NCBI GenBank assembly: GCA_009746045.1
Contig: RPFO01001943.1
Coordinates: forward strand, 32,725 to 96,724
Length of the DNA stretch: 64,000 bases
Direction: 5' to 3'
Source of the DNA: Mesostigma viride
Taxonomy: Eukaryota > Streptophyta > Mesostigmatophyceae > Mesostigmatales > Mesostigmataceae
This document shows positions 15,030 through 57,615 of this stretch, piece by piece. Every line of letters begins with the position of its first letter. Position 1 is the first letter of the stretch. The position numbers and the translations under genes were made by a program. Under the pieces are notes generated by a model that did no database searches, was not told where the DNA came from, and saw only the letters and a program-made list of their open reading frames with translations.

Positions 15030-15034
15030 CAGGC

Positions 15035-32900: not shown

Positions 32901-33003
32901 AATATTAGTGTAGTATATCAAACAAAATAGTAATAAAGTATTTGCAAGCGTACTTCGTGTGAATTATGTGTAGACGAGAATAGAAGCTAAACAAAACTCT
33001 AAT

Positions 33004-33071
33004 GGAGAAAGAGGGATTCGAACCCTTGGGAAAGTTACCCCATACATAGCATTCCACTCGGACATTTCTCC
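33004..33071 (-). pseudogene. Internally deleted tRNA-Ser(GGA), plastid-type
   Basis: On the minus strand GGAGAAA and TTTCTCC form a perfect 7-bp acceptor stem. TGTCCGAGTGG is the class II D-arm start, and GGGTTCGAATCCC is a perfect T arm, preceded by a serine-type variable arm. From GAGTGG the sequence jumps directly to AATGCTATG, which fits the end of a GGA anticodon and its 3' stem. About 20-25 nt (D-loop and 5' anticodon stem) are missing. It therefore looks like a plastid-style tRNA-Ser(GGA) broken by an internal deletion at a TGGA-like microhomology. It ends without an encoded CCA. Confidence 0.65.
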
Positions 33072-33106
33072 GAAAAAAAGGTCACGTAAGCTAAGGGTGG
33101 AGAGTT

Positions 33107-33163
33107 AAGGGTGTAGGTTGTAGGATGTATGGTGTAGGGTGTAGGGTGTAGGGTGTAGGGTGT
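33107..33163. repeat. Short GGTGTAG tandem repeat
   Basis: About five 7-bp GGTGTAG units plus degenerate neighbours. It differs from plant/algal telomere repeats TTTAGGG or TTTTAGGG and is not called a telomere. Confidence 0.8.
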
Positions 33164-33500
33164 CTTGAGCTTTCTTTTTTGAGATCAATAGAGTCCCCTT
33201 CCATGATCATGTGCGTGATCTGGTTATGATTTTCATCTATGGCGTGTGTGGCCACATCGTGTATTTACAACTTTCTAGCCATGGATAACTAGGTAACCAT
33301 AAATTGGTTACCATGATAACTAGGTAAAAACGTGTTGGTTTCAGAATACATGTGATCGCTGCATTGTCATCTACAATGTACAAATCAATCACGGATTTCG
33401 GGGCTACGGATTTCGGGGCTAAGTTTTTGTGGGTAGAGATTGGCAAGGGTGTCTTTATCTTGCCACTTGGTCACTTGGTGTGCATTACGTCTGTTCTTGC

Positions 33501-33811
33501 GTTGGAGTCAAAAAACTGTCCGTGTGTGGTGGTGGACTTTTCCTCACGGGCAGTCGCCATATGTCATACAAGCACTTGTTCGGCGTACCACTAGCTCATG
33601 TATGTCACCATTGTAATTTTGCGTTGTAACAGCATTTCTCGGAGCCAACGGCCGTTGGACTCAAAAAACTGACCGTGTGTGGTGGTGGACTTTTCCTCAC
33701 GGGCAGTCGCCATATGTCATACAAGCACTTGTTCGGCGTACCACTAGCTCGTGGATGTCACCATTGTAATTTTGAGTTGTAACAGCATTTCTCGGAGCCA
33801 ACGGCCGTTGG
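33501..33811 (+). repeat. 154-bp tandem duplication with dyad
   Basis: Two copies (about 33,501-33,654 and 33,655-33,808) of a segment running from GTTGGAGTCAAAAAACTG to TCTCGGAGCCAACGGCCG. Small substitutions only. No convincing gene. Each ends in the dyad listed next. Confidence 0.85.
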
Positions 33812-34323
33812 ACTTCGAAAAACTGATAGCCTTGTCTGAAGGTGTGTGCGTGAATGGCACATGTGCATCGTCGGGGGGAGTTTTCTCAAGAGCCACATGT
33901 GGTAGTGTAAGGTGGGCATGCTTAGTGCGTACGGGTGGGAGGGACAAGAGGTGCAGAAGTTGACGGCTTTTGACCTTGGGAAATGACACGGCACACATAA
34001 GACAACAAAGTGATAATTTTAATGTCTTTACGGGTGTACTGTCAATTTCTCCGAGCCAACGGCCGTTGGACTCTCGAAACTCTCCTGTCTACAAAGTGTG
34101 TGCGTGCGATGGCACTTGTTCCATGTGCCGGGGGGGGGTGAGAAATCTGTCGTTCATTAATTTGTGCCTCGTCGGGGTGGGCATGCATGAATTTGTGCCT
34201 CGTCGGGGTGGACATGCATGAAAGCATTTTCATTGGTACTCGGGGTTCAATATTTTTGTCTTGCTGTTGAAACGTCGACGTGCTCTTCTCCTGCTCTTTT
34301 TTTTTCCTACTCAACGGCCGTTG
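33645..34323. promoter_or_regulatory. Recurrent 14-bp dyad CCAACGGCCGTTGG
   Basis: A perfect palindrome at 33,645-33,658, 33,798-33,811 and 34,056-34,069, with variants at 34,312-34,323 (12 bp) and 35,367-35,380 (CCGACGGCCGTTGG). Most copies are embedded in TCTCGGAGC...GGACT. It could be a site for a dimeric DNA-binding protein or part of a dispersed repeat. Function is inferred only from symmetry and recurrence. Confidence 0.5.
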
Positions 34324-35845
34324 GTGCTTTTAAACTTGCCCAGCGTTATGACTAGGATGCCCTTCTTTACTGCTAGCCACCGCCCCTTGTGTACAATGCT
34401 AGAATTAGGCCGGGGTAATGGTACACGTCCACCGCGTCCCCAGTGCAAGGTTCGTGAATGCGCTGGTTCGTAAAAAATTCGGCACTTGGAAGGTTCGAAC
34501 ACCTGACCCCACTTTCGTTATTTCAACATGCCCTGAACGAAAAAGCTGCGTAAAGGATACATTAACCGTTCCCTGTTATTCTTGATTATATTATTGCGAT
34601 ATCATGGACGTACACACGCGGTTGGTGGTCCGTACTTGCCAACTGCACTTGCAAACTGACTGACTGACTGCCTCCGTTACGCACTTGCGTGTGTTTCCGT
34701 ACTTGCCAACTGAACTTGCAAACTGACTGAATGACTGCCTCCGTTACGACTAACAAGTGAACGACGAGTGAGCTACTAAAGTTTTGTTCAGTTCATTGTG
34801 TCTATATGTACATAGCCGTTTCTTCAAAACCGTTGCGTGGATACCTTGATTCTGGGTTCGCTGATACTTGTTTCCCATTTTAAATCTCCCGTCCATAATT
34901 GGATACATGTAATGTAGGAGGATACCCACTTGCCCGAAATCCGCGTAACGGGTGATTAGTACTGCTGTAAGCGGAACCACAGACAAATCTGTCTAACGGG
35001 CTAACATTATTGTCCTTCATGTACTGGTTTTTGCACGCAGGACGCCATTCGCAACACCGCCTGACGGAGTCGGATGGACCGGACGTGCGTGAGGCTGCTG
35101 TTCACAGTCGTGAAGTTGGCAGACATTAATATCAACACGGTCACGAGAATTCGTCCAGAGAATAATTGATGCTTGTGACGTGCTCGACGGCTGCGATGAC
35201 CGAGATGATGCGTGTAGTGCACAGCGTCCGAGACGTCGCGACACCCGTGGCTGTCCTGTTGATGCGAACGCACGGTGACGAGACGGAGCCCATTATATAG
35301 GTGGATTACAAGTTAGAACGGCCCTCGCGGTTGCACTGTTTAATCGCGAACGTGGATTTTGCGGAGCCGACGGCCGTTGGGGATTGGAAATCTGATGATA
35401 TCGGGGCTGCGCACGACATCGAGGAACTGGGGATCGACGTAGGTCTACAGGCTCACTTGTCCGTCAACATGTATGGCCTCGCTTGACTGTCATCATCTTG
35501 ACATGTACATAACTAGTTCATATACCATGCATTTGACACTGCCTGCACGTGGATTTTCCAGACATACATTGAGGGTAATTATAACTCGAAAGCACTACGT
35601 ACGATTGAGACGTCCGGTCGTAGAGCAGATGCACTGGAGCTTTCTGATCTTCCAATTGATGGGTCTGTAATTATGTAAGATATTCAGATATCGCGATGAC
35701 TCGAGCATCGATGCATGGAATGTAATAATGTATTTCATTCAATTATACATCCAATTTAACTCCGCAATTGAGGGGCACACATGTCCATCAGCCCGAGACA
35801 ACATTTCCCAAGTAATTTTCGATTAGTGATTTAGTGTGGGCCTTC
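34324..35845. other. Transition zone without a supportable gene
   Basis: AT/GC-mixed sequence with short open frames on both strands and no recognised domain. A roughly 75-bp tandem duplication (CTTGCCAACTGMACTTGCAA) lies at about 34,640-34,750. Minus-strand frames at 34,750-34,986 and 35,007-35,273 read like possible decayed coding sequence, but I cannot assign them. Confidence 0.5.
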
Positions 35846-36285
35846 CCTGCACCACTCGGGGTGTTGACAGGGGGCGGATGACAGCATCAGGGTGCGTGCG
35901 CAGCCAGACAGGCCACTCTGGTGTCAAAGTTTGACATATCCTGGCCAAAAATAATATCTAAGACACCCAGTATAAAGAGTTTCTTTTCCCCAGCCTCCCG
36001 GTGTCCAGCCGTCCGACGGACGGGAGGACGCCCCGGGTGCCCCCCCGAAAATGAATCACTACATGCATGTAGTGATTCATTTTCGGGGGGGCACCCGGGG
36101 CGTCCTCCCGTCCGTCGGACGGCTGGACACCGGGAGGCTGGGGAAAAGAAACTCTTTATACTGGGTGTCTTAGATATTATTTTTGGCCAGGATATGTCAA
36201 ACTTTGACACCAGAGTGGCCTGTCTGGCTGCGCACGCACCCTGATGCTGTCATCCGCCCCCTGTCAACACCCCGAGTGGTGCAGG
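35846..36285. repeat. Perfect 440-bp palindrome
   Basis: The sequence equals its own reverse complement about the centre at 36,065/36,066 (ACATG|CATGT). The arms include CTTTATACTGGGTGTCTTAG and a GC-rich CGTCCTCCCGTCCGTCGGACG segment. Symmetry ends at 35,846 and 36,285. The same 107-codon open frame is present on both strands as a result and is not a gene. It marks the left edge of the virus-like gene block. Possible origins are a fold-back element, a hairpin end of a virus genome captured at integration, or a template-switch artefact. Confidence 0.9.
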
Positions 36286-39147: not shown

Positions 39148-39198
39148 AGTCATTCTTTCATTCATTTTTTTTTTTCGCGTGTTATAGATGTATTCACA

Positions 39199-39462: not shown

Positions 39463-39490
39463 CTTATTTTCTACCAACAAATTAAGAATA

Positions 39491-39832
39491 ATGGCATTCT
39501 GGGGTGCTTCTCTGTCTCAGCTATGGAGTATCATGTTTGGATCGCCTGCAAATTTCTTGTCCGCAGCTTTGGGATTTTCAGTTGGAATGATTGCCGAAAA
39601 GTACGCCGTGTCTTTGGTCTTTATGGCAGTCGCCGCAGTCGTTGTGTTACACACAGCCGCTACGGCTAGCTATGTACGTCGCGACGGCTTCCGCTGTCAA
39701 CTGTCGCCGCTCGACAAGGAATGCATCTGGGTAAAATGGGTGTCACTCGCACTTGGCTTGTACTTCAGCTATTACATGATAACAAGATCGATATCCGAGG
39801 CCAGAATTGTCATGTATCCAACAAGGACTTAA
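39491..39832 (+). CDS. Multi-pass membrane protein, 113 aa, paralogue of the preceding gene
   Basis: Start at ATGGCATTCTGGGG (39,491), 28 bp after the previous stop. Hydrophobic segments near 20-36, 40-60 and 84-100. The loop RRDGFRCQLSPLDKEC carries two Cys and an acidic residue spaced as in the upstream neighbour. No named family. Probably part of the same membrane module. Confidence 0.6.
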   Translation: MAFWGASLSQLWSIMFGSPANFLSAALGFSVGMIAEKYAVSLVFMAVAAVVVLHTAATASYVRRDGFRCQLSPLDKECIWVKWVSLALGLYFSYYMITRSISEARIVMYPTRT

Positions 39833-39861
39833 ACTTTATCAAAGGCATTAATAGTACGATA

Positions 39862-40200
39862 ATGGATCGCGATTTGGTGCTGTTTATACTTGTCGTGCTT
39901 GCTTTGCTATACGTCGCAACGAAACTGAGCTTTTCGATAACAAACGGCCTTGCCACCGCGTGGTGCACAGTGACCCTGCGTCCTGGCGATAAGAAATGCA
40001 AAGAGAGCACCGCGTCCCGCATCAGGGCATCTTTTGGCGGTGGAATCTTGCCCGTTATCGTTGGAGCGGCAGGGGCGCTTTCGATTCGCCGGCTTATTGC
40101 AATTCCAAGCGAGCGACCGGTGGTGATGGTGTACGACAACGAACCAAGGGTGCCAAGATCACCAAGACGCGGGCGCATGCCATTTTTTAAATGGAAGTAG
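39862..40200 (+). CDS. Membrane protein with basic C-terminal tail, 112 aa
   Basis: N-terminal hydrophobic helix (about 5-23), a loop with two Cys (AWCTVTLRPGDKKC), a Gly-rich hydrophobic segment (about 56-76) and a basic tail (RSPRRGRMPFFKWK). It has the same helix-loop-helix layout as the two preceding genes and is probably the third paralogue. It ends only 3 bp before the stop of the convergent gene. Confidence 0.6.
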   Translation: MDRDLVLFILVVLALLYVATKLSFSITNGLATAWCTVTLRPGDKKCKESTASRIRASFGGGILPVIVGAAGALSIRRLIAIPSERPVVMVYDNEPRVPRSPRRGRMPFFKWK

Positions 40201-40203
40201 GTG

Positions 40204-40584
40204 TCACTTTTGATTCTTGTTTATTCGTTTAATGAATACCCACTTTCCCATCTTCATAGCCGCAAACAGTAGTTTGTACGCTAGGATCCATAGAAACACA
40301 GTTCTAAGCATCACGTGTACACTTTCTAGGCGGTCATCTATGACCTCCTCGCAATATTGCGGGCTTTCTTTCCACATTTCAGACGATGTTGACGTCATCT
40401 GTGCACAAATGTCATGCTTTTCCATGTTCATCCAAAAGCCCATGTCTCCAAAATGGGGGCCTTTTAAAAACAGATCACGCAGAGGGCGTTTTACAACTAG
40501 ATCGTACACTATCGCCATTGTATCGCTCTCATACACAAGGTACGCGATTTTAAACGCGCCATGCTTATTCAAACCTAACAACAA
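40204..40584 (-). CDS. Hypothetical protein with C-terminal membrane helix, 126 aa
   Basis: Globular N-terminal two thirds, then a hydrophobic segment (about 93-109, VFLWILAYKLLFAAM) and a Lys-rich C-terminus (KRINKNQK), a possible tail anchor. Convergent with the membrane-protein cluster. Overlaps the next minus-strand gene by 20 bp, typical of compact virus genomes. No family recognised. Confidence 0.6.
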   Translation of the reverse strand: MLLGLNKHGAFKIAYLVYESDTMAIVYDLVVKRPLRDLFLKGPHFGDMGFWMNMEKHDICAQMTSTSSEMWKESPQYCEEVIDDRLESVHVMLRTVFLWILAYKLLFAAMKMGKWVFIKRINKNQK

Positions 40585-40783
40585 AGCGGCGCACCACCTG
40601 TTTCACTTGTGGCCGCACAATGATAGCAAGATCCGAAGCCTTGCATCTGTTTCTGCACTTGATGATTCTGCCGCCTTTGACTCGCACGTTTGGCACCTTG
40701 TCTTTCCCCCTTGGCAGGTCGGCCCTTATTTCGTCTGACTGTGGGACCGCGCATATTCGATCACGCCATGCTGGATGGCCCAT
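40565..40783 (-). CDS. Small basic protein, 72 aa
   Basis: Lys/Arg-rich with two Cys in IIKCRNRCKASDLAII and a helical C-terminus (VKQVVRRFVVRFE). It overlaps the 3' end of the upstream gene by 58 bp, so translation may start later than the first ATG. Kept because the frame continues the minus-strand series and has consistent composition. Function unknown. Confidence 0.4.
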   Translation of the reverse strand: MGHPAWRDRICAVPQSDEIRADLPRGKDKVPNVRVKGGRIIKCRNRCKASDLAIIVRPQVKQVVRRFVVRFE

Positions 40784-41232
40784 CGGAAGAAGTTCATCTG
40801 TCCAGGCGTGGTCACGATCTGCTTCACCCCGTTGCAGAGTTTGGTCTTGTTGCGCCTGGCGAACGGGTCGAACATGCGCTTCGAGTAAAATTCAAGCTGC
40901 TCGCGGTATGACATGTACAGGTTAAACGGTAGCGCGCCCTCCTCGACGCAGTATTCGACTCTCCGCGTCTTAGCAAAGTTTGTAACCAGCCACTCAATCA
41001 CGCGCAAAGAAAGGCCTGATGATGGCTTCCTCCCCTCGGCATTCGCAAACTCGTACAGCGTGTCAAAGTTGGCCGAGTTGCCATAAAAACGCTGAAGAGA
41101 CCTCTCCAGCAGGTCCATGGCGTCCAAGGCTGAGCTTGTACGTGTAAGATCAGGCGTGGAAATGTCGCGAGCGTCCGCTGTGTCACGTGTCGTAGTGAAT
41201 GCGCAAATCGAGGACGATTTCGACCGCTGCAC
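40726..41232 (-). CDS. Conserved giant-virus-type small protein, 168 aa
   Basis: The C-terminal half has the pattern YSKRMFDPFARRNK followed by IVTTPGQMNFFRWAIQHGVI, which I associate with a small protein conserved in several nucleocytoplasmic large DNA viruses. Its role is not established to my knowledge. The N-terminus is Ser/Thr/Asp-rich and the middle is helical. Divergent from the gene at 41,291 across a 58-bp gap with a TATA-like CTATATATTTC. Confidence 0.6.
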   Translation of the reverse strand: MQRSKSSSICAFTTTRDTADARDISTPDLTRTSSALDAMDLLERSLQRFYGNSANFDTLYEFANAEGRKPSSGLSLRVIEWLVTNFAKTRRVEYCVEEGALPFNLYMSYREQLEFYSKRMFDPFARRNKTKLCNGVKQIVTTPGQMNFFRWAIQHGVIEYARSHSQTK

Positions 41233-41290
41233 TACGAGACGCTTGACTGGCAGATGATCGTGCTATATATTTCTATGCGTGTAGATGTAG

Positions 41291-41896
41291 ATGATGGAGG
41301 ATGTTAAATTGCTAAAGAAATCCCTCGCGACAACGGAGAGGATGATAAAGCAAGGGTTGCGGATACCGTCCGACACAGACCGCGGTCTGTCTTTATTGCT
41401 CAGGAAGTGGAATCGTCTTAAGAAGCAGCTCGCGTACGTCATGCAGTATTACGGACCGGGCGTATCGACAGGCCTGATCGTTCCTCGCCCACCCAGTGAC
41501 TCACGCAAGGTGGCGGGCGACAATTCTGCCACGTCGCCTATTCAAAACGCCGAGATGGGCGACGCTATCTCTGCCAAAAAAGACAAGGTCGCTATCTCTG
41601 CCAAGAAAGAAAGCGTCGGAGACAATCAGGAGGTGCGACCCAAGACTCGCAACTATGAATACGGCGAGTCCGGTGGGGACATGGGTATCAGTCGAGACAT
41701 GATGGAGAGAATCGTTGACAAGGTCAAATACGCCGCTCGTATTCTATGGTTAGGGTCATCATGCAGCCATATAACCACATATCAGTGCCAAGCTCCTCAA
41801 CTGCCTCATTATGCCAGGGATGATCAGAATGGGGCGATTTATTCTGCCTGCTGGTATCCCTATCAGCCTAAACCGTGTATGCCGACCCGGACCTGA
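41291..41896 (+). CDS. Hypothetical charged protein (C-terminal end uncertain)
   Basis: The first 150 residues look genuine: a basic helical N-terminus (LLKKSLATTERMIKQG) and a Lys/Asp-rich linker with an internal repeat (AISAKKDKVAISAKKES), ending in a helical segment with DMMERIVDKVKYAARIL. Beyond about 41,750 the frame runs through the start of the next gene and its composition changes, so the natural end is probably lost or lies near there. No family recognised. Confidence 0.5.
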   Translation: MMEDVKLLKKSLATTERMIKQGLRIPSDTDRGLSLLLRKWNRLKKQLAYVMQYYGPGVSTGLIVPRPPSDSRKVAGDNSATSPIQNAEMGDAISAKKDKVAISAKKESVGDNQEVRPKTRNYEYGESGGDMGISRDMMERIVDKVKYAARILWLGSSCSHITTYQCQAPQLPHYARDDQNGAIYSACWYPYQPKPCMPTRT

Positions 41897-45902: not shown

Positions 45903-46550
45903 ATGTCATTATATGCTGACAAAAATAAACTGAGCTTCATTCAAATGGGAATAGGGAAGATGCTGCTTAGAAAGATACAATGCAATTGCGGTCCTAAGCC
46001 GGACAAACAGCCGGAAGAGGTCCTCAGAAACGCGGTGCTGCACGAACTTGAGCCGTTCTCTTTTAAAGGGCACGCATTTTCGCCCGTCAAAGTTGTCAAA
46101 GCATACGACGGGGACACCGTCAAGGTCGCGTTCCTGAGCCCGTGGACCAGCTTGCCAGCGACGCTTACCGTGCGACTTTGGGGAATAGATGCCGCGGAAA
46201 TCGCACCCAGGCTCGATACTCCCAACCGCGACACCACGCGCATGGCAGCAGTCAAGGCGCGCAACCGACTGATACAGTTGTCAACAGACGTGAAACTAGA
46301 CGTCGACGATATGGTCAAGACCTCCAAGGATATCCAGACGCTGATCGACACCACTAACAAAAAGTTCCTTACACTGCACTGCCAAGGGTTCGACAACTTT
46401 GGACGAGTGCTGGGGGTAATTTACACGTTGGACGGAACGTGTATCAATAAGGTCCTGTTGGATGAGAAGATCGCAGGACCTATGGCCACCATCGACGAGC
46501 ATCGGGCAGCATCACCCTTTAGACCAGAAACGCTTATAGGTCCATTGTGA
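45903..46550 (+). CDS. Staphylococcal-nuclease-family (thermonuclease-like) protein, 215 aa
   Basis: SNase-fold proteins hydrolyse DNA or RNA in a calcium-dependent way. After a 50-residue leader the fold is visible: VVKAYDGDTVKV (Asp-Gly-Asp-Thr turn), TLTVRLWGIDAAEIAP (the Arg-x-x-Gly-Ile-Asp-x-x-Glu active-site strand) and DNFGRVLGVIY (strand with the second Arg). The key acid, Arg and Glu are in place, so it may be active. Such genes occur in several giant viruses. Convergent with the DUF5767-like gene and overlaps its 3' end by 17 bp. Intact. Confidence 0.85.
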   Translation: MSLYADKNKLSFIQMGIGKMLLRKIQCNCGPKPDKQPEEVLRNAVLHELEPFSFKGHAFSPVKVVKAYDGDTVKVAFLSPWTSLPATLTVRLWGIDAAEIAPRLDTPNRDTTRMAAVKARNRLIQLSTDVKLDVDDMVKTSKDIQTLIDTTNKKFLTLHCQGFDNFGRVLGVIYTLDGTCINKVLLDEKIAGPMATIDEHRAASPFRPETLIGPL

Positions 46551-47667
46551 CCCGTGACGGGTCGTCGGTCGCCGATGCGGCCGTCTGAGACTTCTTGCCG
46601 CCAGACCTCCTCTTGGCCTTCTTCTTTACCGCGTCCACCTGCACCTTGCGCACATCGCTGTCCCACCCGCGCACCGACCCGTCCTCGACCCCGCTGTCGC
46701 CAGCCTCGTCGTCAATTACTTGCACGGCGGCAGGTGGAGGAGGGGCAGGCGGAACGACCTCCCTGACGACCCTGTCCATGTTCACGGGGATGGGGATGTC
46801 GGGTCTGAAGAACCCCGGGCCGCGCATCACGTACCCGCCAGCAGCGCCCGCTTCTTCATCGTTTGCGGCCGGGGACGGGGGTCTGGGAGGCGCCGATGCG
46901 TTCGCGGCCTCCTGTTTGGACACCATCATCTTGACAAGGCTTTTCATCAGCTCGGGGTCGGTCTTTGCGATCTCCGTCATTGACGGCAGTCCGGCGCTGG
47001 CAAACGACGCCGACATATGAAACATCATGGCCGAACCCCCCAGCATCAGCATCAGCTCGATCTCAGGGGGCATGGCCACGCGGTGGCGATGCTTGTCGTA
47101 CAGTCTCTCAAACACAGTGTCGTAGTCGGATATGTTTGCCAGAATGCTCTCGGACCATCCGTCCAGGCGCAGGCCCACCGGGTCGTACCGTGTGTTAAAA
47201 AACTGAATGGCGGACGTAGTGGCCACCAGCATCTGTCGCATCGTGTTGACGGCGTGCCTGGACTCTACCGACCGCGATACTTTGTCGAACTCGAACCGCA
47301 TCTCGTCAATGTCCGACCGCATGTCGAACGCCGGCACGGAAAACCCTTTCTCCTTGTAGCGGTGCAGCTTGTGCAGGATCTCCATCTTCTCCGCGTGTAT
47401 CTGCTGGGGGCTCTTTTTGGGCATCACGGCTTCGGCGTCCACCACGTCAGCCCCGAAGCCGAAGTCCTCCTCGTACGCGTCGTCGTCGTCGTCGTACCCG
47501 TCAAACGTGAAGTCGTTCTCCGCTACCGGCGGGGCAGATGGAGGCGCAAAGAATGACTTGGACTTTTTGGGGTTGGCAAGGGACTCAAAAAATTCGCCCT
47601 CGTCCGCCTTCGCACTCGCCTTCTTCTTAGCCAGTGCGTATTAATTAATTAATTAATTATCAACATC

Positions 47668-47681
47668 ACTCCGTTGGGAGT
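47668..47681 (-). promoter_or_regulatory. 3' stem-loop of LINE-like copy 2
   Basis: ACTCC-CAAC-GGAGT. Same loop and position as 28,348-28,361, with compensating stem differences. Confidence 0.6.
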
Positions 47682-48082
47682 CAATGTAGCACATATCCCT
47701 GAGAAGGGGCATATGGCTTTAAATACATCCTAGGCTACTTCATGCAAGGGTGGGAATGTAAGCAACACTTGCTCTAGGTGCCGCAAGGGCACCGGCACCA
47801 CCATGCTGTCTCAGGTTCAACCCAGCTAAGGGGATCCTGGCACGGGGGAGGAAGATCATCATGGCTATGCAAGGGCTAGGGCATGGCTTCTCGACAGAGA
47901 GCATCTCTCTGCATGGCATAGCATGGCTAAGTTCTTAATGCAACATCCATGGGGGTCCCATTATAGACAAAGCATGGCTAAATGTTGAAGGCATCATCCA
48001 TGGGGGCCATTATGGGCGCACATGCGCGTGGGCCACATGCTAGGCTAAGCCTTACTAATCTACACTACTGGTATATATATTC

Positions 48083-49429
48083 CTAGTCTGAGGTGGCAGG
48101 AGGGGGCTGCCAGGGCTTGTGGTCAACGTGGATGACCGCCCCCCTCCAGTATACCGGCTTCCCCCTTGCGCTCTGCCGGAGCTGAAGGTAGGCCGGCCAT
48201 AGCTCGCGTCGCCGTTGTTGCTGGGCCAGGGTCAAGTCGTCGTCCAGCGTGAAGCGAGTCTCCGAGAGCTTCTTGCGGCATTTAAGGAACGCCAGCTTGT
48301 CCGCCATGTACTTAAAGGTGAGGAGCACGGGGGCCGGGCCAGCCTTCCCCCGCGCGCGGGGGAGGCGGACAGCCGACATGTCCAGCTCACCAGTGAGTAA
48401 CATGGGGGCAAGAATGGCGCGCTTAAATGCCTCAAGAAGGCTCGTGGAGGTCTCACCTGCCTGCTGGTCGAAGTGCTTGACGATGACATTGTGGCTGCGC
48501 CGGGCGATGTCGGCTTCCTCGCGAAGGTCGAGGGCTTGTTGCTTGAGTTGTGCCGAGATGGTGGAGGTGGTGGAGGTGGTGTGCTGCTTAAGCAAGTCCG
48601 CCCAGGTGGAGGGAGCATCGCCGGCCGAGCCAGCAGGCGCCGGCTGGGCGGCGATGTCCTTCACCGCCTGGGCGGTGAGGCCGGCGGTGTCATGCAAGCT
48701 CTCAAGGGCGTTGGCGGTGGCTTGAAGGCGTTGGTCGAGGTCGAGGAGCTGGGCTTTGATGTCGGCAGTGGAGGCGGAAATGGCCGTGGAGGTGGAGGCG
48801 GCGGCGGTGGAAATGTGAGGAAGTTCAGCAGTCAGCGTGCCGCCGATTGCTGCTATGTCGGCAGCAAGGGGGGTCACGTGCTGCTGAAAGGCTTCCGTGA
48901 GGATGGAGCGGAGGGTGGGGACGGAAAGGGGTGGAGCCCAGATCTCGCCGTCAGAGCGCTGGAGAAGGGAGTTGAGGATGGCGTGCTGGAGATGGGGGCG
49001 GACGCAGCCGGACAGCCCGTAGATGTTGGCCCAGCGGCTGCCGTCCGGGGCGAGGAGGCGATTGATGGAGTGGAAATGGAGGCACAGGTCGTAAAGCGAA
49101 GCGTAATCCCCGAAGAAGATGCAGCGCAGAGCATCGGTCGGAGAAATGGTGGCCCAGTCGTAATCTGCGACCTTGAAAGGCCGGGGCCGAAAGCTCGGTT
49201 CTGGGCGTGAAGACCCTCCTGTGTCGTCGGCTGGGCGGGTGCGCTTGGGGTCAGGCGATGCAGATGGCGAGGCGTTAAGCCCGGGGGGTTGCTGGACGAC
49301 CACCAGTGCACGACTAGTGTCATCGCCGCCTGCCGGACCTGAAGGCGAAGCTGCAGCCTGAGCTGCAGAATTTTCATTGCCGAGCGCAGCCGCCAGGCTG
49401 CGTTGCGTCGAGGCGCGTTTGTGCGCCAT
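48083..49429 (-). CDS. L1 ORF1-like nucleic-acid-binding protein, intact
   Basis: 448 residues. An Ala/Ser/Pro-rich N-terminus, a conserved-looking globular region (about 80-160), a Thr/Ala-rich helical stretch (about 190-300) that could be a coiled coil, and an RRM-like region with a C-terminal domain ending DDDLTLAQQQRRRELWPAYL and VYWRG. It is only distantly similar to the copy at 26,587 in the N-terminal half but clearly homologous at the C-terminus, so the two belong to different subfamilies. No reverse transcriptase follows. Confidence 0.75.
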   Translation of the reverse strand: MAHKRASTQRSLAAALGNENSAAQAAASPSGPAGGDDTSRALVVVQQPPGLNASPSASPDPKRTRPADDTGGSSRPEPSFRPRPFKVADYDWATISPTDALRCIFFGDYASLYDLCLHFHSINRLLAPDGSRWANIYGLSGCVRPHLQHAILNSLLQRSDGEIWAPPLSVPTLRSILTEAFQQHVTPLAADIAAIGGTLTAELPHISTAAASTSTAISASTADIKAQLLDLDQRLQATANALESLHDTAGLTAQAVKDIAAQPAPAGSAGDAPSTWADLLKQHTTSTTSTISAQLKQQALDLREEADIARRSHNVIVKHFDQQAGETSTSLLEAFKRAILAPMLLTGELDMSAVRLPRARGKAGPAPVLLTFKYMADKLAFLKCRKKLSETRFTLDDDLTLAQQQRRRELWPAYLQLRQSARGKPVYWRGAVIHVDHKPWQPPPATSD

Positions 49430-49622
49430 ATATTGCGTTTTAGATTCGGAAAATTATATCAGCATGTGCGTCTTAGAAAGACGAAGCGATAGTGATATTC
49501 ACGGCTAAATTCGGTGCTCAAACGTGAAAGTTATGAGCTCCGACAGCCATGGCTACCTCGTGGCCGGAATTGATGGGCCCCCCCCCAGTGCGTATGGCGC
49601 ACCCTTATCACTAGGAAGTCGG

Positions 49623-50000
49623 AAAAAATTCGTCCTGAGATCTCTTGAGATTCTCCTGAGTTTTTTTTTGACAAATCTTGAGAAATCCTGAGAAATCCTG
49701 AGATGTCCTGAGAATATCTTGAGATTGTCCTGAGATTAATCCTGAGTTTTCCTGAGATTGTCCTGAGATTCATCCTGATATTTCGTCTTCACAAAATCTG
49801 GTAAGTGCACACCTCGGGTCCTGAGATTCTGGTGAAAAACTCAGGACAAAATCTCAGGACAATCTCAGGACAAAATCTCAGGACAATCTCAGGACAAAAT
49901 CTCAGGACAAAAAAACGAGTAGAATCTCAAGAAAATCTCAGGACAAAAAAACGAGTAGAATCTCAAGAAAATCAAGAACATGCACAGGCGAATTCTCCAG
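49623..50000. repeat. Left subterminal CCTGAG/CTCAGG repeats
   Basis: Many tandem or scattered copies, in the TCCTGAGAT orientation to about 49,830 and ATCTCAGGACAA after that, so the region can fold on itself. The right-hand counterpart is at 53,930-54,237. Confidence 0.85.
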
Positions 50001-50559
50001 CCATTCTGGGACAAAAAAATGGTGTTATCAGGGACCGTCAGAAATACGACAATGCAAGATGATTACAATAGGGGCATGACTCACAATCAGTGCATTTATT
50101 ACATTGATAAATATTATTTAAAAAATCTTTTATTCATAGGCAAAAAATAAATCACAACAAAAAGAGGATTGCTTCTTCATCGTTTGGCAGATCTTGTAGA
50201 TCATTTGGTTCTTCATATACTCTGCCAAACTGTGCTTCGTTGCACATTTACCTGCACGCATAAACCAGGAAGGGGGAAAAACAGCATTAAACAGGACCAT
50301 GATTAGAACGCTGGGCTGCAGCATGTGCACATGTACACCTAACCAGACCAAAGGCATAGCAAACAACATCATGCTCGGCATAAAAAAAGATACTTCTGAC
50401 TGGTACAAAACATTGAAAGGGTGACCCAAGTGAAAGCCTAGCACCGCCATTATTGAGATGTGCAAGACCAAGAAACCACGACATTGCATATGACCGATGC
50501 ATTGAAAAAGGGAAAACACGTTTATTAACTGTGAAGCTCCAGGGTAACTAGACTAAATT
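50001..50559. other. Interior of the TIR element, no gene seen
   Basis: AT-rich unique sequence. A 129-codon minus-strand frame (50,130-50,519) has Met/Cys/Phe-rich composition without a domain and is not called. Confidence 0.5.
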
Positions 50560-51150
50560 TCTTCAGGGCAAGGGACTAATTGAATTCAGCAAGCAAGCGT
50601 ACATGCGCGCAAGGACGAGAGTGGCTAAATAAGGAAGCAAGGGCCTAACAAAGGAAGCAAGGGACTGATTAGATTCAGCAAGCAAGCAATTGCAAGCATG
50701 CAAGGAAGAGGGGCTAACAAAGGAAGCAAGGGCCTAACAAAGGAATCAGGGGACTGATTCCATTCAGCAAGTGGTCAAGCATGCAGGGAAGGAACGGCCT
50801 AACCAAGTAGGCAAGGTCATATCAAAGGAAGCAAGGCATTAATTAAATTCAGCAAGCATGCGAGGAAGAGTGGCTTACAAAGGAAGCATGGGACTAAGAA
50901 AGGAAGCAAGGGACTAATTACATTCAGGAAGCACGCATGCAAGGAAGCAAGGGAATAAAGCAAGGAACTAATCAAATTCAGCAAGCGGCTAAACAACCAA
51001 GCAAGGGCCTAATCAAGGAAGAAAGCAACCACGCAAAGAAGCAAGCAAGCACGCAAAGACGGAAACAAGCATGCAAGGAAGCAAGGGGTTTATCAAACTC
51101 AGCAAGCAAGCATGCAAGGAAGCAAGGAGCAAGTGAGGGACCAAGGGACT
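50560..51150. repeat. AAGCAAGG-type degenerate tandem repeat
   Basis: Repeated phrases GGAAGCAAGGGACTAATT, AATTCAGCAAGCAAGC and CATGCAAGGAAG, irregularly spaced. No gene. Confidence 0.8.
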
Positions 51151-53011
51151 AATCAACTTTATGACACTTACCACGCAGAAGGGACAACCTCATGACCGCG
51201 GAGAAGATAACATTCCGTCCCTCCTGTTGCGATTGCAAAGGGGAGAAAGAATAGTAGTGATGTAAGGAATGAATTCCAGTGCAAAATTAGGAAAATACCT
51301 TCAATAACAAAGCTAGTAAGTAGGCAAGGTAATTAAAAAGTAGGTAGCAAACTGATGACAACATGCACATACTCACGCATGGACCAACCAAGTTAGTATC
51401 TAATCTACTATGTGGCTTATGAGGAAGCACCATGAAACATTTGACCTTACTGGCTTCATCAGAACACGTCTAGATGCTTTTCCTTTGCAAAGATAGTCGC
51501 AATTGACGCTTGGGGCTTGCATGGGATTCAGGTCTGCATGGACGTGCTTTGACAACAAACGGGCATGTACGCACAAAAATGCCCAAGGACGGTACTTCAT
51601 GATGGTCATCTTCATGAACTTGACCACGCATGTAAGAGGACAAGAAATCAAGTATTCAGAGTTCATGCTATACTAAGAAACCAGCTTTTGCTCAGAATGC
51701 CGCTTTTGCGGTCTATGGGCCTTCCAATGCAACCTGCCAAGCAATTCTCATAAGTATCCTTGCTCAGCTACGCAGTTGCTCATTTTCCCGGCTCCATTCC
51801 TCTTCGATCACAGCCTGTCCATGACGGCCTTGTAGGTTTTGGATAGCTCCAGAATCTCGCTCTGTTTATTCTCCGTTACTTATGTCACTCACATGTCGTC
51901 GCTACTAGAACCGCTTCTAGTGCGGTTCTCGCTGCCACCCCTGCTGCCACACCTGCAGCGCTTGTTATTCGGTGGTTGCATTCATTGGTTACGTATGGAA
52001 ATCGGTTGCCCCATCGCTCGAGCTAGCGTGTATGTGCCCTCACTGCCCGCTAGCCCCAGCACTGACTTGACTGCGAACAACGGCTAGGGCTACGTCAAAC
52101 GCGTTTTTTTGAATTTGCGCAAAAAAAAAGATTGCGACTAGGTCACATCCGTAGCCAGCGGCAGGCGGAATGTCTCGAGTGATTCCAGCCAAGCGATCTT
52201 CCGTATTGTCATGACATCTTACCTTTCCACTGGTTACTACTTGTCTCAAAGCCTTTTAGAACGGTCGGAGCCGCAAACTGCCGATAAATTTACAGGTACA
52301 GTAACTAGTATTCACCAATGAAAGCCACAGGCATTTAAAAAACCGCCGTCCTGCCAGACCCTAGAAAACGCTTGGTCCTGACTTTGCCGGACAACCATTG
52401 GAGCAGGTTATAAAGTGCGACAACGATTTCTGATTGTTGGCTGACAGACTGACAGCCGACAATTATTAACGCAAAGTCACTAAAGCAATTAGGCAGTGAG
52501 AACATTCTACAAAAGAGCTCTTAGTTCGGGCTTTATATAAGTAGTACCTGCCTGTTAAAAATTGGAACAAGGATACGGTTCCGGCATCCGTTTATTCCGA
52601 AGCCGGTACGGGCAAGGCTAGGGAACCGGCGTGGGAATAAACTGAACTGAACATAACTGAAATAAAGGCCGTTATGGTGCCGTGAAATAGCCGCATGACG
52701 ACAGTGCCGTTCCAAACTTTCAACTTCGCGCCCTACCTCTCTTAACCGTTACCTGGTAGACCGTTGGTCCAACGAGCGAAAAATTTAGAAAGGTTGCGAT
52801 TAGGCAACGCGACCTTGCACCTAGCCGCACCCATGAACGCCTTCAGCAGCCATGTTAGGCAACACAACCCTGCACCTAGCCGCACCATTCCATAAACGCC
52901 TTCATCAGCCATGTTAGGCCGGAATAGACACGGCATTTCCACTTTGGGTCTCGCACTAGTCAAGTCACTTGCTCAGATAGTATATCACTAGCTCTGACCC
53001 GCCTTCAAGCG
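51151..53011. other. Interior of the TIR element, no supportable gene
   Basis: Only short frames without recognisable motifs. A small tandem duplication (CTTGCACCTAGCCGCACC...AACGCCTTCA) is present at about 52,803-52,920. Confidence 0.5.
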
Positions 53012-53387
53012 GTTTGGTAGTGCAGCGGCTGTGTGTGGTTCTACCAAACGACTTTCAGAAATATGTGCCTACTCCATGGCCCCATCGCGGCAAGTAGCGG
53101 GAGCGCTTGCAGAATGTAAGTGATGCTGCGCCTATACCGAACCCCGTCTTTGCCGCCATGAACCATGACTCCGGACGGAGCTGCGATGACGTAAAGATGG
53201 TTGAAGGTCGCGGGTTGCTGTTCTGTAGTTGCCCCAATGCTGTTCTGTAGTGCTCCGATTGATGTGAGCTGATAGCGGCCTCTTCAATACCTTGAGTTTT
53301 GCACGTGCTCACGTGGGGCCATGGAGTAGGCACATATTTCTCAAAGTCGTTTGGTAGAACCACACACAGCCGCTGCACTACCAAACC
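53012..53387. mobile_element. Nested MITE-like inverted-repeat element, about 376 bp
   Basis: Inverted repeats of about 78 bp: AGCGGTTTGGTAGTGCAGCG at 53,012 is mirrored by CGCTGCACTACCAAACCGCT ending at 53,387, and both arms contain ATATGTGCCTACTCCATGG. The centre is unique and non-coding. It lies within the larger TIR element. Confidence 0.85.
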
Positions 53388-53929
53388 GCTCGCGTGGCAA
53401 GAGCCGCACTGCTGGCAAGTCCATGGCAGCGGCTAGTGTCAGCGCATCGAGCCCTGATGACATAGCTAGTGTTTCGTCGTTCAGCAGCAACGGTGAGGCA
53501 TGCATTCCCTCACAAAGGAGAAGTGAGAGGCAGCGTGCTGTAGTAAATTATGCGGACAACTCTGACAGTGCTGCATACACTGATGAGGAGTGGCATTGAT
53601 TATATTTCTGGCAATGATGCCTGTAATGTAACTTGTTGTGTGCTTGTCGCACTGCATTATCAAGGAGACAACCAGCGCAGGCCAGAAATCGGGAGAATCC
53701 GGACCATGCATTATATTTATTTATTTCCAATGAACATGTGTGTCAACTGCATCATTTCTGCATCCACATATAATGCATAAGTGTCCTGTCTTCATGCACT
53801 TGAGAGTTCTCAAGTGTCATGCTCAGTGTCCTGATTTTCCTGATTTTTTGTGCCATGCTAAGTGTCCTGATTTTCCTGATTTTTTGTGCCATGCTAAGTG
53901 TCCTGATTTTCCTGATTTTTTTCTGATTC
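53388..53929 (+). other. Interior of the TIR element, short C-terminal-like frame
   Basis: A plus-strand frame ends at 53,599 with a Ser-rich, then acidic tail (RRSERQRAVVNYADNSDS). It could be the remnant of a transposase C-terminus, but no catalytic part is present. Then three copies of a TGTCCTGATTTTCCTGATTTTT phrase at about 53,825-53,930. Confidence 0.35.
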
Positions 53930-54237
53930 AGCGGGAAAATCTCAAGATCTTGAGATTTTTTGTGTTGTTTCGACATTTTTCTCAGGATCTCAGGATTTTC
54001 TCAGGATTCTCAGTGTTTCTCAGTGTCTTCGCGAGACGCATCTCAGGCACTTCTCAGGACTCTCAGGAGGAAGTCCTGATATAATATCAGGATTCCTGAG
54101 AAAATCTCAGTTTTTCTCAGGATTTCTCAGGACATCTTGAGAAAAAAATCAGGATATCTCAGGAAATCCTGAGAAAATCTCAGGAAATCCTGAGAAAATC
54201 TCAGGAAATCTCAGGATTCCTGAGAAAAATCTCAGAA
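53930..54237. repeat. Right subterminal CTCAGGA/TCCTGAG repeats
   Basis: Dense short inverted and direct copies of AATCCTGAGAAAATCTCAGG, leading into the right terminal repeat. Confidence 0.85.
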
Positions 54238-54507
54238 CCGACTTCCTAGTGATGCTTGCGTCCGCTGTGCGGCGCCTGCGCGGGCCAATCGCCGTCGTCG
54301 TCTTCCACGAACTCGACGTTGTCCATCACACCGCCCGAACGGCCGGTGCCGAAACGCCGCCCCCCGAGCCCGCTTCCTCCTCCTCCAGGTCCACGGGTAT
54401 GAGCTTGGTAGACATGGCATCTAATAAACCGGGCCGATTTAGACTCACACGGAAGCGCGAACGCGTTTGTTCCTCCTCAATGCCTGTTGCCTGGCCCTGC
54501 TGCGTGT

Positions 54508-55460
54508 TCACGCGGAAGAGCGTATCAACATGGCGCATACGATCATCTCCCCCGTGTCCACAAGCGGCTGATCGCAACCGATCCCGGCGTCGTGCAGCGT
54601 GTGGTATGCCATGGAAGCCGCCAGCCACGCTAGCGTGTACGCGGGCACCTCGCCGCCCAAGGCGGCCGCCGCGTCCCTCTCAGCCTTCACCATGTTCACG
54701 CACGTCTGCGCCGTCGCCTTGCTCGCGTGCTCGTCGAGCGCGCGCAAGTGCCGCATGTAGACGCGCCATTGGGGAATATAGTCCGTCGCCACCGCCATCA
54801 GCGATTGCGCGTCCACGTTCTCTCCGCCCACGATATCGATCATGCTAGACACCAGCTCGGTCGCGACCCTGTCTATGCCGGCAACTAGCGACTCGTGCTC
54901 GCGTATCGCGTCCACTATCTCCGGGTGCTGGTATATGAACAGCGTCGAGTGCCTCTGGAACCCCAGCTCCCTCACCTGCTTATCCAGACGCCACAGGTCT
55001 ACCGCCGTGAACGGAAAACGCGTGGCGGGGTCCTCGAACCTCCCTGACGTCGCGATGTACTCCGCCAGCCGCACGGCGTCAAACCCCACCACTTGCCGCG
55101 TGGGACGCACGAACTTGAAGACTCTCTCTTTCGACGGCAGCGCGTCCATCGTTATCGGGTCCTCCTTGTTAGACACCCTCGCTGCCAGGTGACGAGCGAT
55201 CGTTCTCTTGGCGCGTGCGTACGGCAGCACCTTGCGCCTCACCCACCGCTGTATGGTGATGGCCCGCTGGTTTGCGAACACGCTGCACTCCAGCTCGCGC
55301 AGGGTGGCGCTGCGGAACGGTCGCAAGCCCTGCATAAGCGCGATGCGGCGTAAGTCTCTCGCCGCGCTTTGCCGTAATAATTGAACGGGACCACGGACGC
55401 CGCACGCACGCTGAGGCGCACGTCGCGGGCGTCCGGCGACACACGGAACTGCTTTGTCAT
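54508..55460 (-). CDS. IQ-motif and U-box-like virus protein (probable frameshift near the start)
   Basis: From Met at 55,335 the frame is 275 residues. An IQ-like helix (AITIQRWVRRK) is followed by DPITMDALP, GFDAVRLAEYIATSGRF and DPATRFPFTAVDLWRLD. This resembles the U-box-like arrangement seen in many giant-virus proteins, where a loop-helix module without zinc may act in ubiquitin transfer or as a binding platform. The C-terminal half is helical. A second frame from ATG 55,460 (MTKQFRVSPDARDVRLSVRA) runs into it if one base is shifted near 55,350, giving a longer protein of about 317 residues. Its stop lies 92 bp before the ATG of the split gene. Confidence 0.6.
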
Positions 55461-55549
55461 TTACTGAGTGTTTCTACAATTTCGTCGCCCTGTTAGGCGA
55501 GCGTTTGCGTCAAAATCCTTTTTATTAACGAAAGTTACGAAAGTTATAT

Positions 55550-55708
55550 TTACAAATGCCATCGTGGCTGCACACGCCCATCACCCACCGCGCGAGGCAC
55601 GGAGTCGCGCACCGACTCCAGCAGCGGCTCTACGATCACGCGCCCATTCACGACAACCACGCATCTGCCGCAGTGCGTGTCTGTCCTCTTGCTAAAACAC
55701 GCGCCCAT
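55550..55708 (-). CDS. Small protein with N-myristoylation signal, 52 aa
   Basis: ATG at 55,708. The N-terminus MGACFSKR fits the myristoylation consensus (Gly2, small residue or Ser at position 6, followed by basic residues), as in membrane-attached virion proteins. Two further Cys (HCGRC). The rest reads VVVVNGRVIVEPLLESV. It lies 27 bp after a small membrane protein gene on the same strand. Confidence 0.5.
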   Translation of the reverse strand: MGACFSKRTDTHCGRCVVVVNGRVIVEPLLESVRDSVPRAVGDGRVQPRWHL

Positions 55709-55735
55709 AAAGTGCACACACAAAATAATCGACAG

Positions 55736-55894
55736 CTACTGCAATAGCACCCATAGCATTGCAAACAGGATGAGCCAGGCGGACAGTCCTACTGACAGCA
55801 AACCCAGAATCGCCGCAATGTGCCTGCCTGGCAAAACAGGGTCGAGTGACTCGACCGGCTTCAGGTCTGAGAGCCCCTCCACAACCGGGGGCAT
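55736..55894 (-). CDS. Small tail-anchored membrane protein, 52 aa
   Basis: ATG at 55,894. A polar N-terminal half (VVEGLSDLKPVESLDPVLP) and a long C-terminal hydrophobic helix (AAILGLLSVGLSAWLILFAM) reaching the stop. The frame has better coding character than the longer overlapping frame at 55,692-55,922. Typical of small virion or host-membrane proteins in large DNA viruses. No family recognised. Confidence 0.55.
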   Translation of the reverse strand: MPPVVEGLSDLKPVESLDPVLPGRHIAAILGLLSVGLSAWLILFAMLWVLLQ

Positions 55895-55940
55895 GCTCGT
55901 TGGAAGATGTCAAAGGGCGCATGATATATACATTATAAGA

Positions 55941-56204
55941 TTAGAAACTACTGTGCGCTATAAGGTCTATCGCGTCTCCCTGCACAACCTGGATTTCTCG
56001 CGGCGAGGGACCGGATACGGATGTTCTAAATCCAAGCTGTTGTGTCTGGTTCGCTCGTCCTGATTTCTGGGGGCCGACATCTGGCGACGCAGCAGGCATT
56101 CCGCCGATACAACCGCCCTGCTTCTGCCCCTTGTTAAAAAGCGTAACAGCCTCCGCAAAGCGCCGACGACGCCTTTCCGCTTCTCCATGACAACTGGCCG
56201 TCAT
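55941..56204 (-). CDS. Hypothetical protein, 87 aa
   Basis: A basic N-terminal region (RRRRRFAEAVTLFNKG), a Gly/Pro/Ser-rich middle and an acidic/hydrophobic end (QGDAIDLIAHSSF). The ATG at 56,204 follows the stop of the coiled-coil gene by about 1 bp, consistent with tightly packed minus-strand genes. No domain seen. Confidence 0.45.
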   Translation of the reverse strand: MTASCHGEAERRRRRFAEAVTLFNKGQKQGGCIGGMPAASPDVGPQKSGRANQTQQLGFRTSVSGPSPREIQVVQGDAIDLIAHSSF

Positions 56205-56205
56205 T

Positions 56206-56856
56206 TTATTTTACAGTCGCCTTCTGATTCGCAAGCGCCGTCTCGACCTCCGAAAGCCTGCACCTCAGCCTGTCGTTGCTGCTCATAAGGTCAGACACCG
56301 TCCGCCTCATCTGAATAATGGTGGCATCCTTCTCCTCCAGCTCCTGCCTGACCGTTTCCACCTCCACGACCAGCTTCTTCCGGACCCTCTCGTGCCGTTT
56401 TCGGGCGGCGTCGCGCAGTTTCTTGTTCTTTGAGACGACATTCTCGATCTTGTCCTTCATATCAGAGAACTGGGCCAGGACATTGGTTGCAAAGTCCCTG
56501 GGAACCAAAACTTTGGAAGGCAAAGGCCCCTCGTTGAGCCTTATGACGCGATTTCCGGTGCACGGGCTCTGCTCCGGCGTCCCATCCACACGAGAAGCGA
56601 AAACTTGGGCGGACTCGTGCAGCCTCCTGCTCTCGGAAACAGGCTCTGAAAACTCGAAAGAGGCCACTTGATCCCTAGAAACCAGCTCTTTAGACGACAA
56701 ACAGCTGTTCGTGAAATTTCCGGTGGACGAGCTCCGATCCGGCGTCCGCTCCACCCGAATTTGCCCTTTGGGAGGTACGTTCTCCTTGTCAGAATCGCAT
56801 TCACTGCTGCTTTCCGTGGAAGAATACTCAGAACTGGATGTATTCTCCTCCTCCAT
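56206..56856 (-). CDS. Ser/acid-rich protein with C-terminal coiled coil, 216 aa
   Basis: Start taken at ATG 56,856 (MEEENTSSSEYSS). The longer open frame upstream (to 57,087) runs through intergenic repeats. The N-terminal 130 residues are Ser/Glu-rich with two similar R(T/V)(D/E)xTP(D/E)(Q/R)SxxTGN segments, an internal duplication. The C-terminal 90 residues form a long heptad pattern (SDMKDKIENVVSKNKKLRD ... RRTVSDLMSSNDRL), so an oligomerising scaffold is likely. No family recognised. Confidence 0.6.
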   Translation of the reverse strand: MEEENTSSSEYSSTESSSECDSDKENVPPKGQIRVERTPDRSSSTGNFTNSCLSSKELVSRDQVASFEFSEPVSESRRLHESAQVFASRVDGTPEQSPCTGNRVIRLNEGPLPSKVLVPRDFATNVLAQFSDMKDKIENVVSKNKKLRDAARKRHERVRKKLVVEVETVRQELEEKDATIIQMRRTVSDLMSSNDRLRCRLSEVETALANQKATVK

Positions 56857-57615
56857 GGCAACACAATTTCGGACAGAATGGCACTGAATGCAGCTGATAT
56901 GGTGTCCAGAGCTCAGGTCGACGGGTCCACCAAAAATTATTGGCATGCAATTCCTGTCAATGCACTTGAGCTTTCGGTCCGCACGGATTTCTGCCCGAAC
57001 CGGCCCAAGCGCCCAAAAAGACGCCACGTGGATCCGGTCCTCTGGAAATGCGTCAGCCCGTACGGATTTCTGCCCGAACCGACCCAAGCGCCCAAAAAGA
57101 CGCCACGTGGATCGTGGTCCTCTGGAAATGCGTCAGCCCGTACGGATTTCTGCCTGAACCGGTACAAGCGCCCAAAAAACGCCACGCGGTGCCGGTCCTC
57201 TGAAAAAACGGATTTCTGGTCGAAAAGCCAAAATGGCAGTGAACAAAAAAGGTTATTAACAGGAAGCCCCCACCAAAGTCATCCATCTCACTGTCCATCC
57301 AGTCTGCACACCCAAGAAACTCCTAAACGGCCCGAACCACCCAAGAATTCGCCTGTGGTGTTGTTTGCTAAGCGTCCGAAGCACCCAAGAATTTCGCTGT
57401 TCGAATTCCCGAGGCCCGAACCACCCAAAAATCGCCGCTGGTCGTCTTCCGGAGTTCCGGACCGCCCAAATTTGTTTTCCTTCCGTCGTCAAGGGCTCGA
57501 CCGAAATTCGGTCCGGTTTGCGTTCCAGAGGCCCTGAGCACCCGAAATTCGCTTCTGTTCGTCTCTCGAGGCCCGAATCACCCGAAATTTTGCCTGCTCA
57601 CGACTTTTTTCGAGG
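56857..57615. repeat. Divergent intergenic region with two degenerate repeat families
   Basis: Three copies of a roughly 70-75-bp unit (CGTACGGATTTCTGCC...CAAGCGCCCAAAAA) at about 56,975-57,200. Then five degenerate copies of GAACCACCCAAGAATTC-type sequence about 45-60 bp apart at 57,330-57,595. They lie between divergent genes and could be promoter-associated. No gene seen. Confidence 0.7.

What the first reader, a model, noticed from the sequence alone, without database searches (positions are those of the whole stretch)
46534..54415. A giant-virus gene cut by two mobile elements whose removal restores one exact reading frame
The virus gene carries an ORF1-only LINE-like element (11-bp duplication CCAGTGCGTAT) and, 11 bp away, a 4.6-kb TIR element (AT duplication). 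Counting 73 + 2 + 11 + 11 + 1,097 bases gives 1,194, exactly 398 codons, with both junctions in frame and the residue pattern continuous. Host-type elements jumping into virus DNA, after which the gene could no longer work, is direct evidence that the virus block is a resident, ageing insertion and not a contaminating virus genome.
Basis: partly seen in the sequence, partly recalled or inferred. Interest (0 to 1): 0.92.

Follow-up and report, generated by a model that had tools for sequence, protein, structure and literature searches.

The report
Virus gene split by two transposons
In the DNA of a cell that carries many giant-virus insertions, one virus gene has been cut by two of the cell's own jumping elements, and uncut copies of the same gene elsewhere in that genome show exactly where each one landed.

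Summary
A DUF5767 gene is cut by a 1.94-kb ORF1-type element with an 11-bp target duplication and a 4,643-bp TIR element with a 2-bp duplication.

Three other loci of the same 440-Mb assembly carry the gene uncut. They are 99.3-99.5% identical to the window and have each duplicated sequence once, at exactly the predicted point.

Both inserts are repeats of this assembly: 39 more full-length or nearly full-length rows for one and 9 for the other, one of each being contig C432, the same locus.

The virus DNA is resident: DUF5767 at 133 places, NCLDV capsid at 150 scored places, many on megabase contigs. 'Ageing' is half right: the block is truncated and permuted, but the inserts are young, with 0 substitutions against 12 of 18 other loci. 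Host elements in virus DNA alone do not prove residence, since free viruses can carry them.

Transposons colonising endogenous giant viruses are already described. This is a clean, datable new case.

The parts
46534..47631 (-). 3' piece of the DUF5767 gene (365 aa and stop; domain at residues 128-209 of the piece)
   Evidence: Pfam PF19071, E 1.1e-29, 102.8 bits; 99% identical to three uncut copies
47631..47641 (.). target-site duplication of the ORF1-type element, copy next to its 3' tail
   Evidence: exact CCAGTGCGTAT
47642..49584 (-). ORF1-type element: (TTAA)n 3' tail on the left, ORF 48083-49429, 13 bases at the 5' junction (49572-49584) that most other copies do not share
   Evidence: core 47643-49571 recurs as a unit of about 1,929 bp: 40 full-length or nearly full-length rows at 96-100%, window and C432 included; duplications of 8 bp or more in 18 of 20 fetched rows
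48083..49429 (-).
   Evidence: the residue pattern is recalled only
49585..49595 (.). target-site duplication of the ORF1-type element, second copy
   Evidence: exact CCAGTGCGTAT
49596..49606 (-). 11-base piece of the virus gene between the two insertions
   Evidence: present between the flanks in the uncut copy
49607..49608 (.). AT, duplication of the TIR element, left copy
49609..54251 (.). 4,643-bp TIR DNA element, non-autonomous (only one ORF of 120 aa or more lies wholly inside it, 129 aa), 14-bp TIRs, subterminal repeats, nested 77-nt inverted repeat
   Evidence: 10 rows span its whole length at 96-100%, window and C432 included: 8 with ends 1-4643, 2 with 1-4641; two-base duplications in all 8 of 10 fetched rows with both ends readable
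54252..54253 (.). AT, duplication of the TIR element, right copy
54252..54415 (-).
   Evidence: start inferred from the frames of C487 and C1724 and of the diverged copy L013; not supported by C1835
41872..64000 (.). virus block shared, whole or in part, with C432, C487, C1724, C1835, C36 and C1522
41872..42618 (+). virus gene cut short at 41872: the three uncut copies continue differently upstream
35846..36285 (.). perfect palindrome, 2 x 220 bp, at the left edge of the virus-like block
33000..35847 (.). part of another high-copy repeat whose end is at 35847
   Evidence: matches at 35 other places, 99-100% (39 of 580 candidates scored); the two copies fetched diverge from each other and from the window after exactly that base

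Best explanation
This is one locus of a nucleocytovirus family that is endogenous and repeated in a 440-Mb genome (eukaryotic by size and repeats, an inference; the host was not identified). After the virus DNA was integrated, two host elements inserted into its DUF5767 gene 13 bp apart. One is a short retroelement that behaves as if copied by target-primed reverse transcription with borrowed enzymes. The other is a non-autonomous cut-and-paste DNA element. Each made its usual target duplication, so the gene lies in pieces of about 164, 11 and 1,100 bp separated by 6.6 kb of inserts and very probably cannot make its full protein. Shown: boundaries, duplications, repeated nature of both elements, uncut copies at other loci, a second assembled copy of the cut version. 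Inferred: that insertion followed integration, the enzymes that moved the elements, and loss of function. Which element came first is unknown.
For: Exact duplications. Three natural uncut copies, one of them read base by base with each duplication once and the frame open. ORF1-type element: 40 full-length or nearly full-length rows (40 of 7,422 candidates scored), (TTAA)n tails, duplications of 8 bp or more in 18 of 20 fetched rows, two of them the same locus, against 1% of 5,706 mismatched pairs. TIR element: 10 full-length rows (28 of 1,376 candidates scored) and a 2-bp duplication of varying sequence in all 8 of 10 fetched rows with readable ends, 7 independent loci. The same double insertion on contig C432, 99.3% identical over window 41427-64000; contig C36 (664 kb) begins 34 bases inside the TIR element and continues the same flank. 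Virus context: DUF5767 at 133 places and NCLDV capsid at 150 scored places, 0 of 14 controls each; 18 of 52 DUF5767 sites on long contigs have a scored capsid gene within 70 kb, about 2.5 expected; the uncut copy on C1724 has two capsid genes 25-26 kb away. Window and C432 share 17 differences from an uncut copy in 2,988 bp, while the ORF1-type insert has none against 12 of 18 other loci: the inserts look younger than the split of the virus copies.
Against: No reads were available. C432, C36 and C1597 may come from one locus and are not independent. The window block has no capsid match among the ORFs scanned. No autonomous partner of either element was identified. The ORF1 label rests on a recalled pattern; Pfam and PDB gave nothing usable. 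Most TIR-element relatives listed (17 others) share only parts of it, 1-3372 and often 4103-4643. The element copies compared were the best-scoring ones, which favours young copies, although zero private substitutions in the window's ORF1-type copy does not depend on that choice. One uncut copy (C1835) lacks the upstream frame that I take as the gene's start.
Confidence: 0.9

Rival explanations
1. The elements jumped into replicating or packaged virus DNA before integration, so the virus brought the cut gene with it.
For: Precedents in free viruses: MITEs in pandoraviruses (PMC6004678, abstract) and a SINE-like sequence in IIV-6 (PMC6401454, abstract).
Against: The cut version was found in one local context only (C1597, C432 and C36 share flanks), while C487, C1724 and C1835, identical to each other apart from one gap over the 3 kb compared, lack both inserts. 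The block around the cut gene is also truncated and permuted, as expected for a resident relic.
Confidence: 0.08
2. Assembly artefact: a collapsed or chimeric join of repeats in a repeat-rich assembly.
For: Both inserts and the virus block are multi-copy; window and C432 differ by many small indels (79 gap openings over 22.6 kb); C36 and C1724 contain runs of N.
Against: Exact duplications at both inserts and a matching empty site in three other contigs cannot easily arise from mis-joins. The same structure is assembled on a second contig.
Confidence: 0.03
3. The inserts are spliced out like introns and the gene still works.
For: The uncut copy's frame is open across the sites.
Against: They are elements of 1.9 and 4.6 kb with target duplications found at many places; removal of an element alone would leave the second copy of each duplication. 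No RNA data to test it.
Confidence: 0.02

Closest known systems
Giant endogenous viral elements with secondary TE insertions in Amoebidium (PMC11244446, passages seen)
   Same: Many dispersed nucleocytovirus insertions, some with later TE insertions
   Different: Another host (reference assembly 202 Mb there, 440 Mb here); here one gene with both insertion sites shown by uncut copies
TE colonisation and rearrangement of viral regions in Acanthamoeba Neff (PMC12210455, passages) and Euglena gracilis (PMC12455990, passages)
   Same: Mobile elements, truncation and shuffling inside viral insertions
   Different: Other hosts; the virus lineage here was not placed
Ngaro retrotransposons in endogenous virophages of Cafeteria (PMC8547959, passages)
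   Same: Retroelements interrupting endogenous virus genes
   Different: Virophages and tyrosine-recombinase retrotransposons there; a giant-virus gene, a TPRT-like and a TIR element here
Pandoravirus MITEs (PMC6004678) and the IIV-6 SINE-like sequence (PMC6401454), abstracts and outlines seen
   Same: Host-type elements within nucleocytovirus DNA
   Different: Those are in free virus genomes; this one is in a resident block
HAL1-type ORF1-only LINE derivatives (recalled)
   Same: Short retroelement with an ORF1-like frame and no reverse transcriptase
   Different: No sequence relation tested or claimed

Membership tests
DUF5767 (PF19071) | domain above Pfam's gathering score | tested here: met
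   102.8 bits against 26.9
Endogenous nucleocytovirus element | hallmark capsid gene in the same block | tested here: inconclusive
   none among the window ORFs scanned; two PF04451 genes 25-26 kb from the uncut copy on C1724, and 18 of 52 DUF5767 sites on long contigs within 70 kb of a scored one
Endogenous nucleocytovirus element | joined to host DNA | tested here: met
   the same contig carries a repeat of the assembly up to 35847; related copies lie on megabase contigs
Endogenous nucleocytovirus element | phylogenetic placement by marker genes | not tested
Non-LTR retrotransposon (LINE) | variable-length target duplications, simple-repeat 3' tail, irregular 5' junctions | tested here: met
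Non-LTR retrotransposon (LINE) | reverse transcriptase and endonuclease | tested here: not met
   the five ORFs of 120 aa or more in the element (448, 245, 167, 158 and 128 aa) have no Pfam match; so it works like a TPRT-mobilised non-autonomous element and is not filed as a LINE
Non-LTR retrotransposon (LINE) | ORF1p homology | tested here: inconclusive
   no Pfam match for the whole protein, a sub-threshold unrelated one for its C-terminus; PDB matches weak or by composition; fold model too poor, pLDDT 45.6
CACTA/EnSpm | TIR beginning CACTA (recalled) | tested here: met
   CACTAGGAAGTCGG
CACTA/EnSpm | 3-bp target duplication (recalled; 2 bp also known in some) | tested here: inconclusive
   2 bp in all 8 of 10 fetched rows with readable ends, 7 loci; one of them (CC) could be longer
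CACTA/EnSpm | CACTA transposase in the element or a partner | tested here: inconclusive
   one internal ORF of 129 aa with only a sub-threshold unrelated Pfam match; a partner was not searched for

The most novel reading that the evidence does not exclude
Host elements entered virus DNA while it was still replicating, so this virus family can carry host retroelements and DNA transposons between cells; two hits 13 bp apart in one gene would then mark a target that is open during infection.
Probability: 0.07. Interest if true: 0.75.

Novelty: new member of a known kind. Interest (0 to 1): 0.42.

Why it matters
It is a clean case in which the order of events can be read: virus copies diverged by about 0.6% (17 of 2,988 sites), then two elements landed in one copy, and the retroelement has not changed since. 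With 133 DUF5767 sites in one assembly, the same comparison could date virus integration and host transposon activity against each other, and test whether resident virus DNA is a preferred or merely tolerated target.

Tried and rejected
Homologous-protein search was off, so relatives came from the own assembly and Pfam only. Scans of viral contigs with the protein, with a motif and with alignment A1 found no relative (the 12 stretches gave no tblastn match to 18 window ORFs); the ORF1-type protein found none either. No match in phage records. Fold models of P0001 and P0002 made without alignments were too poor to use (pLDDT 43.5 and 45.6); no fold search was made. A PDB match of P0002 to an engineered coronavirus spike fragment (E 7e-4) was set aside as coiled-coil composition. 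I dropped the idea that C432 is an older allele: its 51 substitutions against the window are absent from 46478-57110 and lie outside that stretch, which looks like polishing from other copies or recombination. Cymbomonas was considered as host and set aside on assembly size (PMC10675990, part 1 of 5 of the text read), as was Amoebidium (passages). The host was not identified. PMC13236599 (Ectocarpus) was seen in search listings only. Searches of the own assembly with window 35840-36480 and 36480-41860 never got an answer.

Full report
What was checked. The window is the last 64 kb of contig C1597 (96,724 bp) in an assembly of 440 Mb and 2,243 contigs. The 3' piece encodes a DUF5767 protein.

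Natural empty sites. A DUF5767 search of the assembly gave 133 matches (141 of 141 candidates scored), against none in 14 control genomes. Of five further copies fetched for comparison (L044-L048), three (C487, C1724, C1835) are 99.3-99.5% identical to the window and carry the gene uncut; the other two (C667, C2022) align only over part of the gene at about 71%. In the three, the alignment runs to window 54252, then 11 bases, then from window 47641 onward. Read base by base in C1724, each duplicated sequence is present once. No joining of the window's own pieces was needed. The frame of C487 and C1724 opens 90 bases further upstream and gives 427 aa, and the more distant copy L013 has a similar N-terminus. 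The third uncut copy, C1835, differs by a one-base gap and has another upstream frame, so the start is likely, not proven.

The two inserts. The ORF1-type element is a unit of about 1,929 bp. Of 7,422 first-look candidates 40 were scored; they gave 95 match rows, of which 40 are full length or nearly so at 96-100%, the window and C432 among them. In the 20 fetched rows, target duplications of at least 8 bp were found in 18 (two rows are the same locus), and in 1% of 5,706 mismatched flank pairs. The tail is (TTAA)n and the 5' junctions carry extra bases. This is how a product of target-primed reverse transcription looks (established knowledge of non-LTR elements). None of its five ORFs of 120 aa or more matches a Pfam family, so it must borrow a reverse transcriptase (inference). 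For the TIR element 28 of 1,376 candidates were scored. Ten rows span it whole at 96-100%, window and C432 included: eight with ends 1-4643 and two with 1-4641. Most of the others listed share 1-3372, often with 4103-4643, and belong to a related subfamily. In the 8 of 10 fetched rows where both TIRs could be read, the two bases outside are duplicated: AT (twice, same locus), TG, TA, CC, CA, TT, AA.

Age. Against 18 ORF1-type copies at other loci, the window copy has 0 substitutions in 12 and 1-2 in 6; these are the best-scoring copies. Against 8 TIR-element copies at other loci it has 0-72 substitutions, 0 in two. In 2,988 bp of virus flank, window and C432 share 17 differences from the uncut copy, and C432 alone differs at one more site. 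So the inserts look younger than the separation of these virus copies. Which insert came first cannot be told: neither lies in the other.

Second assembled copy. Contig C432 carries the same double insertion and is 99.3% identical over window 41427-64000. Contig C36 (664 kb) starts 34 bases inside the TIR element and continues the right flank, and C432 and C36 stay collinear for the 7.4 kb searched beyond the window. They may all represent one locus.

Is it a giant virus, and resident? NCLDV capsid (PF04451) matched at 150 places, with 150 of 507 candidates scored, and in none of 14 controls. For neighbourhood I took the 52 of 133 DUF5767 rows and the 44 of 150 capsid rows at contig positions above 200 kb: 18 of 52 lie within 70 kb of a capsid gene, about 2.5 expected from the genome-wide density of the 150. 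The other 34 do not, but 357 capsid candidates were not scored. The uncut copy on C1724 has two capsid genes 25-26 kb away. The window block itself showed no hallmark gene among the ORFs scanned; besides DUF5767 it has a DUF7197 match and a Rieske protein whose neighbourhood recurs at 82-85% DNA identity in 33 other places (39 of 454 candidates scored). Its left neighbour, window 33000-35847, belongs to a repeat found at 35 other places that ends exactly at 35847 in the two copies looked at.

Damage beyond the two inserts. A virus gene is truncated at 41872, where the three uncut copies continue differently. Beyond the window's end, C432 and C36 join a segment that in uncut copies lies on the other side of 41872, in the same orientation, so the block is permuted. 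Most DUF5767 copies are nevertheless open: by my reading of the table, 11 of 133 rows show a frame under 270 aa, a stop or a cut domain. The window copy is not among the 11, because its domain piece is open.

What is known. TE insertions in endogenous giant viruses are reported in Amoebidium, Acanthamoeba and Euglena, and retroelements in endogenous virophages of Cafeteria (passages seen). DUF5767 is listed in the genome of the algal virus CpV-BQ1 (PMC12085832, one passage).

Verdict. Interest is moderate, for the exact empty sites and for the dating they allow.

Noticed in passing
35846-36285: Perfect 440-bp palindrome (2 x 220 bp) at the left edge of the virus-like block, its left arm ending where a host repeat ends; could be a virus hairpin end, a head-to-head join or an artefact.
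   Followed up: partly
33000-35847: Another high-copy repeat ending exactly at 35847 against virus-like DNA; a tRNA-Ser-like primer-binding motif (recalled) at 33003.
   Followed up: partly
41872: Junction truncating a virus structural-type gene; C432 spans it too.
   Followed up: partly
L049:6070-7422 (C432:26070-27422): DDE_3 transposase-like ORF lying across the permutation junction of the cut block.
   Followed up: no
249-9386, 20560-23658, 25667-26372, 28716-32741: Arrays of one 40-bp satellite unit, also in the contig just left of the window.
   Followed up: no
12355-12867 and 14518-15030: Identical 513-bp direct repeats near a Copia-type RVT_2 match in ORF 10911-12335; possible LTR pair.
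   Followed up: no
53008-53390: 77-nt inverted repeats, 99% complementary, inside the TIR element; the related subfamily differs in this part.
   Followed up: no
61839-62342: Rieske [2Fe-2S] protein gene in a stretch (61325-62321) conserved at 82-85% DNA identity in 33 other places.
   Followed up: no
45903-46550: SNase-like ORF (below Pfam's cut-off) converging with the DUF5767 gene, ends overlapping by 17 bp.
   Followed up: no
41427-64000 against C432: No substitutions from 46478 to 57110, all 51 outside: polishing from other copies, or recombination.
   Followed up: partly
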